A stretch of 64,000 bases of DNA from Acidimicrobium ferrooxidans (lineage in GTDB: Bacteria; Actinomycetota; Geothermincolia; Fen-727; Anoxymicrobiaceae). A model generated the notes under the pieces. It saw nothing but the letters and a program-made list of their open reading frames with translations, was not told the DNA's origin and ran no database searches. The stretch is from the NCBI GenBank assembly GCA_020723485.1, contig DYIU01000001.1, positions 248,001 through 312,000 on the forward strand. The letters are read 5' to 3'. The position numbers were made by a program, and so were the translations under genes. This document shows, piece by piece, positions 61,711 through 64,000 of the stretch; within the stretch, counting starts at the first letter, position 1; every line of letters begins with the position of its first letter.

Positions 61711-64000
61711 ATGAGAGGTTTGCCAAAGGGAGGCGCGGGCGCGCCGGGGCGGGTAGATGGTCTGAACCCGGTGTGCGACCGCATGATATCGGCCGTCATG
61801 CCCAGGAGCTGGCGGGAGGGCATCTTCTACGGGGCGTGGTCGACCTCCGAGTTCGTGAAGTGGGGCTACTTCGCCGTCGCCCTGCACGTGCAGGTCCTGA
61901 TCGGCATCTTCTACCCCACGTTCGCCGAGAGGATCTCCGGCTCTCTCGTGGGGTTCTTCATCGAGTTCGGGTCCTCCACCCTGCTCGCCGCCGCGTTCGC
62001 CTACATCATGCTGGGCGGGCACCACACGCTGCACGTGCTCGAAGCCGCCAAGACTTTCAACCTCGAGCGGACCGTGCAGGAGACCATCGGCGCGAGGCTG
62101 GTCGAGAAGATGCCGGACGGCACCGTGAGATTCCGGACAGGCACCTTCGCGTTCTGGAAAGAGGTCCTGAAGAGCTTCTTCGTCGGGCCGACCGGCAAGT
62201 ATCCCGCCATCATCAGGGAAGGACTCAACTACAGGCTGAACGGCACCCCGGCCCTCAACGTCTCGGCCGCCGGGCCCCGTTTCGACCTGATAATGGCCTA
62301 CATCTTCGGAATAAGCGGCCTTGTTCTCTTCGGCATATCCATATGGTTCCGCGCCGCGGACATTCACACCCCCGAGGCCATGGCACTGCTCACCCCGAAG
62401 ATCCTGGCCATCGGCGTGATAGCTTTCCTCGGCAGGCACCAGGACTCGAACGCACTTTACAGGTACAGGGAGAAGAGGAAGACCGAGGCGAAGCTCGCGG
62501 CCCAGATCGCCGCGGGTACCGTGGTCGTGGAAGCCGGGCGCCAGGAGATCGACTCGCTGGCAAAGGCCAGGTACGAGAGGCTCGTGGGAGAGGTCAGGAA
62601 CTCCGCGGTCTACGGCGGTGACGACCCGCGCTTTAAGGACGTGGCGGTCTACCTCCCGGAGGGCGCCCACAACGCGATACAGGGCGGAAAGCACACCGAG
62701 TACGTGGACGCCGAGGGAAACAAGGGCAACACCTCGCCCGACCTTGTGGCACAGGAGAAGTGGATAATCCTCTTCCCGAAGGAGACCGAGGACGTAGCCG
62801 AGCGCGGCTTCTTCGGGACCCTGCGGGTGCTGCCCCACCTCCAGAACCAGGTGATCGCCGAGATACTCTCCAGGGAGGGAGTGTCAGGCGGCGGCCGCGA
62901 GAACGAGGGCGGCGTCTCGTTCAACGGGTACGGCGGCGGGGACGAGGCGGCCATCAAGCTCCTCATGGAGGCGGCCGCCAAGGCCGGGGTCGAGCACGAC
63001 TACCGGTACGGGGAGAACATGTTCCTGGGGATAGACAACGCTGCGGATTCGGACGACATGTTCGACCCCGAGTCGCACCTCTATACATGGCAGGGGCAGA
63101 AGATGAGCGGCGACGAGCTGGTGGACCGCTACGTCGACCTTTTCTACAAGTGGGAGAACCAGCTCGCCTTCGAGGACCCGTTCGCCGCGCCCCGGAGCCA
63201 GTGGAAGTTCTGGCAGAAGCTGACCGACACCCTCGGCGACCGGATGATAATCATCGGGGACGACAGCCTGGTCACCAACCCGTCCATCGCTTACGACGCT
63301 CTCAAGGACGGCGTCTGCAACGCCGGGCTGGTGAAGCTCAACCAGGTGGGGACGTTCTCCCAGGCGTGGATGTACATGGAGGTCTTCCACAGCGCCGGAA
63401 AAGACACCGTGATATCCCACCGCTCGACGCAGCCGGACACGGTCCCGGACCCCCTGGAGGTCACCGCGACGCTGGCGGCCTCCTACAGGCCGAAGGGGCG
63501 AGTGGTGCTGGCCAAGCTCGGCGGCGTGTTCCTGGCCAACAGGGCCGGGCTCTACTACCAGATGCAGAAGTCGGCCGAGGACTGGCGCACGGGAGTCTCT
63601 ATAACCCCCGGTGTCGGTCCGGACGTCACCATCTCGTCCATCGAGGCGTTCCCCTCCACGCTGGGGGCCGGCAAGTACGGCCTTATGTCCTCGATGAGGC
63701 TCTCGAACGGCCTGGAGATAATCTCGCCCATTCCGGGCGGGCTCTCGAGAGGAGAGAACGAGACCAGGCTGGTAGGCCCGGAGGAGGGCATCCCGATCGT
63801 CAGGGAGATAGTGGAGAGGCTGGGGCTGGTCGGCCTCCCGCTCGGGGCGATAGAGAACGTCTTCGAGATAGAGCGGATGATAATGGCGATGGACATCGAG
63901 AAAGCCCGGGACGGCGGCGTGATCCCGGCCTTCTCGGAGGACGCCTGGGACGCCTACGAGGAGGAGGCCGGCTTCAAGCGCATGGTCGGCGGAGACGTGA
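61711..64000 (+). CDS. Membrane-anchored enolase-like protein (3' end outside window)
   Basis: 763 residues in the window, frame still open. Four helices (about 48-68, 80-102, 193-213, 228-241) precede a helical linker. From about residue 300 the sequence follows the enolase barrel: GGKHTE (His328, where enolase has INGGEHA), QEKW (Glu349), GGDEAA (Glu412), GIDNAA (Asp442), AFEDP (Glu488), IIGDDSLVTNP (Asp517), VKLNQVGT (Lys542), ISHRST (570-572) and LAKLGG (Lys602). These align with E. coli His158, Glu167, Glu208, Asp245, Glu289, Asp316, Lys341, HRS and Lys392. The enolase N-terminal domain is missing, and about 140 extra residues follow. ATG 61687 is an alternative start. Confidence 0.85.
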   Translation, partial: MRGLPKGGAGAPGRVDGLNPVCDRMISAVMPRSWREGIFYGAWSTSEFVKWGYFAVALHVQVLIGIFYPTFAERISGSLVGFFIEFGSSTLLAAAFAYIMLGGHHTLHVLEAAKTFNLERTVQETIGARLVEKMPDGTVRFRTGTFAFWKEVLKSFFVGPTGKYPAIIREGLNYRLNGTPALNVSAAGPRFDLIMAYIFGISGLVLFGISIWFRAADIHTPEAMALLTPKILAIGVIAFLGRHQDSNALYRYREKRKTEAKLAAQIAAGTVVVEAGRQEIDSLAKARYERLVGEVRNSAVYGGDDPRFKDVAVYLPEGAHNAIQGGKHTEYVDAEGNKGNTSPDLVAQEKWIILFPKETEDVAERGFFGTLRVLPHLQNQVIAEILSREGVSGGGRENEGGVSFNGYGGGDEAAIKLLMEAAAKAGVEHDYRYGENMFLGIDNAADSDDMFDPESHLYTWQGQKMSGDELVDRYVDLFYKWENQLAFEDPFAAPRSQWKFWQKLTDTLGDRMIIIGDDSLVTNPSIAYDALKDGVCNAGLVKLNQVGTFSQAWMYMEVFHSAGKDTVISHRSTQPDTVPDPLEVTATLAASYRPKGRVVLAKLGGVFLANRAGLYYQMQKSAEDWRTGVSITPGVGPDVTISSIEAFPSTLGAGKYGLMSSMRLSNGLEIISPIPGGLSRGENETRLVGPEEGIPIVREIVERLGLVGLPLGAIENVFEIERMIMAMDIEKARDGGVIPAFSEDAWDAYEEEAGFKRMVGGDV

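What the first reader, a model, noticed from the sequence alone, without database searches (positions are those of the whole stretch)
61711..64000. Enolase barrel fused to four membrane helices in place of the enolase N-terminal domain
The frame from 61711 carries, in order and spacing, the residues that form the enolase active site: His328, Glu349, Glu412, Asp442, Glu488, Asp517, Lys542, His570-Arg571-Ser572, Lys602. Normal enolases are soluble and begin with a ~140-residue capping domain. Here that domain is not recognisable; instead there are four transmembrane helices and a linker, and a ~140-residue tail follows the barrel. No membrane-integrated enolase family of this kind is known to me. 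It may be an enolase that works at the membrane, or a new superfamily member with changed chemistry, since the Ser-containing substrate loop of the capping domain is gone.
Basis: partly seen in the sequence, partly recalled or inferred. Interest (0 to 1): 0.87.

Follow-up and report, generated by a model that had tools for sequence, protein, structure and literature searches.

The report
Membrane-bound rearranged enolase replacing normal enolase
A few soil and sediment bacteria have lost the ordinary form of enolase, one of the most conserved enzymes of sugar breakdown, and carry instead a strongly diverged version built into the cell membrane with its two domains probably in swapped order, which probably does the same job.

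Summary
One unbroken 827-codon gene (61711 to about 64194, 194 bases past the window) encodes four membrane helices followed by an enolase barrel (Pfam Enolase_C 7e-25) with every catalytic residue kept. It is no frameshift artefact: five other Actinomycetota genomes carry the same architecture at 73-81% identity (two with truncated or split contigs).
The interpretation needs changing. The capping domain is probably not lost but moved behind the barrel: the tail matches the canonical cap in collinear order (shuffle P = 0.001 and 0.018, no profile-level significance), restores the P-x-G-x-S-x-G-x-x-E substrate loop, and was modelled, without any cap sequences in the alignment, as three strands then helices, as in enolase. 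So this looks like a circularly permuted enolase.
It also appears to be the host's enolase. In 31 genomes of the class, none of the six carriers has an intact canonical enolase, but 23 of 25 others do. Canonical eno is cleanly missing between mazG and pyk in three carriers; in the window's own genome it remains there as an open frame without Lys345, His159, Glu168, Asp320, His373 and Arg374. Catalysis and membrane insertion are untested. One genome (G001) lacks both forms.

The parts
61711..64000 (+). membrane enolase gene (827 codons; stop about 64194, outside the window)
   Evidence: open frame; same frame in five other genomes
61852..61914 (+). transmembrane helix 1 (residues 48-68)
   Evidence: hydropathy, conserved in homologues
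61942..62013 (+). transmembrane helix 2 (residues 78-101)
   Evidence: hydropathy
62014..62280 (+). 89-residue loop between helices 2 and 3, K/R-rich (12 K+R, 7 D+E), with conserved GGHHTLHVLEAAKT and NGTPALNV motifs; predicted cytoplasmic
62281..62349 (+). transmembrane helix 3 (residues 191-213)
62377..62433 (+). transmembrane helix 4 (residues 223-241)
62434..62640 (+). charged linker, K/R-rich just after helix 4
62641..63561 (+). enolase TIM barrel (residues 311-617); H328, E349, E399, D442, E488, D517, K542, H570-R571-S572, K602 aligned with yeast H159, E168, E211, D246, E295, D320, K345, H373-R374-S375, K396; active-site loop between H328 and E349 longer than canonical by about 12 residues
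63622..64000 (+). probable relocated capping domain (residues 638-827, cut by window end): three strands, Ser loop IPGGLSRGENE (Ser679 = yeast Ser39), helices
   Evidence: ungapped collinear match to the canonical cap; model topology; not significant by HMM

Best explanation
The gene encodes an inner-membrane enolase. Four N-terminal helices anchor it, with the enolase part on the cytoplasmic side (positive-inside rule, inferred). The catalytic part is a circular permutation of enolase: barrel first, capping domain after it, so that the Ser loop still closes over the active site. It interconverts 2-phosphoglycerate and phosphoenolpyruvate with the standard metal-and-lysine chemistry and has replaced the canonical soluble enolase of its hosts. 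Shown: barrel homology, retained catalytic residues, conserved fused architecture, absence or decay of the canonical gene in carriers. Supported but not proven: the permutation. Inferred: activity, topology, benefit of the membrane anchor (for example keeping phosphoenolpyruvate production next to a membrane consumer).
For: Barrel homology. All catalytic residues kept in the homologues that cover them. Permutation: first cap segment (44 columns, no gap) best-matches exactly after the barrel, shuffle P 0.0011, and no non-enolase chunk among about 1,280 scores as high; second cap segment at the collinear place within the tail, P 0.018; AlphaFold2 of barrel plus tail with canonical barrel rows but no cap rows, pTM 0.78, tail strands 355-363, 373-379, 384-388 then helices. 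Replacement: canonical Enolase_C/Enolase_N absent from five of six carriers, present in 23 of 25 others, Fisher P 4e-5 counting G000's decayed copy as lost, 7e-4 counting it as present. Synteny: ppi-mazG-eno-pyk-ftsB in G005; mazG directly next to pyk in G003, G009 and G010 with no eno remnant. G000's canonical copy sits in that locus but has lost H159, E168, E211 (to Asp), D320, K345, H373, R374, and 40 of 144 class-invariant columns against 0-11 in leave-one-out controls, branch 1.41 against 0.05-0.25 for family relatives. Carriers keep pgk and pyk, and three a phosphoglycerate mutase near pgk. Membrane insertion.
Against: The cap is not recognised by Pfam, NCBIfam, HMMER or hhalign. The DSRGNPT motif of canonical caps is absent. 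The segment tests followed an eye alignment of the same sequence. The genomes are related, so the Fisher P overstates independence. G001 lacks canonical eno at the mazG-pyk locus and also has no detectable membrane enolase.
Confidence: 0.77

Rival explanations
1. A membrane enzyme of the enolase superfamily with changed substrate; glycolysis in these hosts runs without enolase or uses an unknown enzyme.
For: Extreme divergence of the barrel (long branch); longer active-site loop; enolase-negative bacteria exist, under 0.5% of isolates (PMC6118326).
Against: All residues that bind 2-phosphoglycerate and metals are kept; canonical enolase is missing or dead exactly in carriers; pgk, pyk and, in three carriers, a phosphoglycerate mutase are kept.
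Confidence: 0.1
2. The membrane enolase is active but the tail is an unrelated C-terminal domain, not the permuted cap; the active site is closed by something else.
For: No profile-level similarity between tail and cap.
Against: Two collinear ungapped matches with the Ser loop and matching strand/helix order in a model given no cap sequences.
Confidence: 0.1
3. The barrel is a non-catalytic membrane moonlighting protein, and the decayed canonical copy in G000 is still active.
For: The G000 canonical copy keeps an open frame and passes the NCBIfam eno equivalog cut-off (468.7 bits, cut-off 300).
Against: That copy lacks Lys345, His159, Glu168, Asp320, His373 and Arg374, whereas the membrane protein keeps all of them; the other five carriers have no canonical copy.
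Confidence: 0.02
4. Assembly chimera or frameshift joining two genes.
For: None found.
Against: Same fusion in five other genomes; in G017 membrane enolase and pyk lie on one contig.
Confidence: 0.01

Closest known systems
Canonical enolase (phosphopyruvate hydratase, EC 4.2.1.11; PF03952 + PF00113, TIGR01060)
   Same: TIM barrel with all catalytic and metal residues; cap-like domain with Ser loop; lower-glycolysis context
   Different: Four membrane helices, barrel before cap, about 30-37% identity over the barrel only, about 12-residue active-site loop insertion, DSRGNPT motif absent, below the TIGR01060 cut-off
Surface or membrane-associated moonlighting enolases
   Same: Enolase found at a membrane
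   Different: Those are ordinary soluble enolases without membrane helices or permutation (own knowledge; PMC5014317 abstract)
Enolase-negative bacteria (rumen Butyrivibrio, Prevotella; PMC6118326)
   Same: Loss of the canonical enolase gene
   Different: No replacement was found there; here loss goes with presence of the membrane enolase
Glutathione synthetase, a natural circular permutation of a metabolic enzyme (PMC2876114)
   Same: A permutation hid the homology of an enzyme with the same function
   Different: Different enzyme; no membrane anchor

Membership tests
Enolase (phosphopyruvate hydratase) | Enolase C-terminal barrel (PF00113) | tested here: met
   7.2e-25, 88 bits over a cut-off of 21.5
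Enolase (phosphopyruvate hydratase) | Catalytic and metal residues H159, E168, E211, D246, E295, D320, K345, H373-R374-S375, K396 | tested here: met
   alignment with nine canonical barrels and residue map; conserved in the homologues covering them
Enolase (phosphopyruvate hydratase) | N-terminal capping domain (PF03952) in front of the barrel | tested here: not met
   no Enolase_N match in the carriers' membrane gene; region in front is membrane helices
Enolase (phosphopyruvate hydratase) | A cap with Ser39 loop anywhere in the chain | tested here: inconclusive
   collinear ungapped matches P 0.001 and 0.018 and model topology; HMM comparison not significant
Enolase (phosphopyruvate hydratase) | NCBIfam eno equivalog cut-off (TIGR01060) | tested here: not met
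   98.5 bits, cut-off 300
Enolase (phosphopyruvate hydratase) | Conversion of 2-phosphoglycerate to phosphoenolpyruvate | not testable with these tools
   needs an assay; indirect support from replacement of canonical eno
Polytopic membrane protein | Conserved transmembrane helices | tested here: met
   four hydrophobic segments in the five homologues whose N-terminus is available; prediction only

The most novel reading that the evidence does not exclude
A naturally circularly permuted, membrane-integrated enolase has displaced the canonical soluble enolase in at least two lineages of one actinobacterial class, leaving a decayed canonical copy in one genome as a fossil of the takeover.
Probability: 0.72. 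Interest if true: 0.9.

Novelty: new variant of a known kind. Interest (0 to 1): 0.85.

Why it matters
Enolase is close to universal, and every canonical enolase met here has the cap before the barrel. A permuted, membrane-built version that takes over an essential step would show that even this enzyme can be rebuilt and swapped, would give glycolysis a fixed address at the membrane, and warns annotation: the standard enolase model accepts the dead canonical copy of this genome (468.7 bits) and rejects the probable real enzyme (98.5 bits). It also offers a testable idea for other genomes reported to lack enolase.

Tried and rejected
Pfam and NCBIfam on the tail and on the membrane part: no usable match; a weak holin_4 hit to the membrane part (E 0.15) was dropped. 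hhalign and HMMER of the tail against the canonical cap: not significant, no better than reversed or shuffled controls; replaced by an ungapped segment test motivated by an eye alignment, so those P values are for a hypothesis formed on the same sequence. Full-length AlphaFold2 with 7 rows: too poor to use. Viral contigs and plasmids: no relative of the family; phage records: only canonical enolase barrels at under 60% identity. A weak tail hit in G190 (2e-4) and weak membrane-part hits in G019 and G202 were judged chance; the G190 locus shows no enolase among its long frames. Shared gene neighbourhood: none clear beyond the congeneric pair G017/G028, so no operon clue. Literature for permuted or membrane-anchored enolase in the open PMC library: nothing relevant.

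Full report
The frame. The frame from 61711 is open and runs beyond the window; in the whole genome it ends after 827 codons, about window position 64194. Pfam finds Enolase_C at residues 356-574 (7.2e-25) and nothing else. NCBIfam's eno model matches at 98.5 bits, far under its 300-bit cut-off, so automatic annotation by that model would not call this an enolase. The closest solved chains are enolases (1.5e-23).

Residues. Aligned with nine canonical barrels the protein keeps the equivalents of yeast His159, Glu168, Glu211, Asp246, Glu295, Asp320, Lys345, His373-Arg374-Ser375 and Lys396, at 328, 349, 399, 442, 488, 517, 542, 570-572 and 602. The loop between 328 and 349 is about 12 residues longer than in canonical enolases.

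The family. Searches found the same architecture in five other genomes: G003, G009, G010 (split over two contigs), G017 and G028, all titled Actinomycetota MAGs, 73-81% identical to the window protein over the matched parts. In 397 genomes of the phylum the tail gave strong matches in only these six, and so did the membrane part. A scan of one genome for each of 84,980 species with exact peptide patterns gave the same five besides the window's own, but such patterns find close relatives only. Four hydrophobic helices recur in all five members whose N-terminus is available. K/R counts of the loops (12 K+R in the long loop, 11 after helix 4, 0-1 in the short loops) place the N-terminus, the long loop and the enolase part in the cytoplasm by the positive-inside rule; this is inference.

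The cap. By eye the tail behind the barrel resembles it: ISSIEAFPSTLGAGKYGLMSSMRLSNGLEIISPIPGGLSRGENE against [44 protein letters not shown]. Profile methods do not support this on their own. An ungapped test does: scored against 23 canonical enolases, the best of all windows in the whole protein is this one, P 0.0011 over 20,000 shuffles, and among 1,292 chunks of real and mechanical frames only canonical enolases score as high. A second cap segment (LGANAILGVSLA...GLPLY) finds its best place within the tail at the collinear position, P 0.018, though not in the whole protein. These tests followed an eye alignment. AlphaFold2 on barrel plus tail, with canonical barrel rows but no cap rows, gave pTM 0.78 and mean pLDDT 70; the tail came out as strands 355-363, 373-379 and 384-388, then helices 405-419, 432-449, 458-467, 475-494 and 498-513. 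These strands are the three expected from the alignment, with the Ser loop after the third, and the enolase cap is known to be a three-stranded sheet followed by helices (own knowledge). Foldseek matches enolases over barrel-sized stretches (E 8e-15); being order-dependent it cannot score a permutation. I judge a circular permutation likely, not proven.

Replacement. In the class (31 genomes) 23 of the 25 non-carriers have a canonical enolase, all with Enolase_N as well; of the six carriers five have none. The sixth, the window's own genome, has one canonical copy (G000:C3:531283-532527, minus strand). Aligned with 20 relatives it lacks the segment with His159, and has Ala for Glu168, Asp for Glu211, Gly for Asp320, Ser for Lys345, Asn for His373 and Leu for Arg374; 40 of 144 class-invariant columns are changed against 0-11 in leave-one-out controls. 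In a tree it sits among its family's canonical enolases on a branch of 1.41 against 0.05-0.25 for its relatives. It looks like a dead enzyme. Fisher's test gives 4e-5 counting it as lost and 7e-4 counting it as present; relatedness makes both optimistic. But G017 and G028 carry the membrane form while G023 of the same genus has the canonical one, and family f1 is mixed too, so at least two replacements or losses are needed.

Synteny. In G005 the order is ppi-mazG-eno-pyk-ftsB. In G000 the dead eno lies in that place. In G003, G009 and G010 mazG is followed directly by pyk, with no trace of eno by tblastn. In G017 and G028 eno is absent near pyk, where G023 has it. G001 also has mazG next to pyk and no eno, but no membrane enolase either, although its assembly is 94% complete; G002's mazG is at a contig end. 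pgk and pyk are present in all six carriers (pyk of G003 split over two frames); G000, G003 and G009 have phosphoglycerate mutase near pgk. So the step from 2-phosphoglycerate to phosphoenolpyruvate appears to be needed and no other candidate was found.

Spread. The membrane enolase is about 80% identical between G000 and G017 of another order, where mazG is 52% and pyk 45% identical, and canonical enolase between orders about 62% (G005 against G023). The flat high identity and the lack of shared neighbours suggest horizontal transfer within the class; slow evolution is not excluded, since the tree of the six is compatible with vertical descent. The clade is separated from all canonical enolases by a very long branch.

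Known work. The open literature held here shows no circularly permuted or membrane-anchored enolase. Enolase-negative bacteria are known but rare, under 0.5% of over 30,000 isolates, many of them rumen Butyrivibrio, Prevotella and Lachnospiraceae, with no complementing function identified (PMC6118326). Whether those hide a permuted enolase was not tested here.

Verdict. A membrane-built, probably circularly permuted enolase that has very probably taken over from the canonical enzyme. Activity, topology and the reason for the anchor remain to be shown.

Noticed in passing
L020:3260-4597 (minus strand; G000:C3, outside the window): Decayed canonical enolase with open frame that lacks most catalytic residues yet passes the NCBIfam eno cut-off (468.7 bits, cut-off 300): an annotation trap.
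   Followed up: yes
L237 (G001:C34:148500-153500): Genome G001 lacks eno between mazG and pyk and shows no membrane enolase or other Enolase_C match anywhere in a 94% complete assembly; how it makes phosphoenolpyruvate is open.
   Followed up: partly
L234:341-1670 (G003:C75): The pyruvate kinase of G003 is split over two reading frames, a real frameshift or an assembly error.
   Followed up: no
window 62014-62280: The 89-residue loop between membrane helices 2 and 3 has strongly conserved motifs (GGHHTLHVLEAAKT, NGTPALNV) that match no known family; it may bind something at the membrane.
   Followed up: partly
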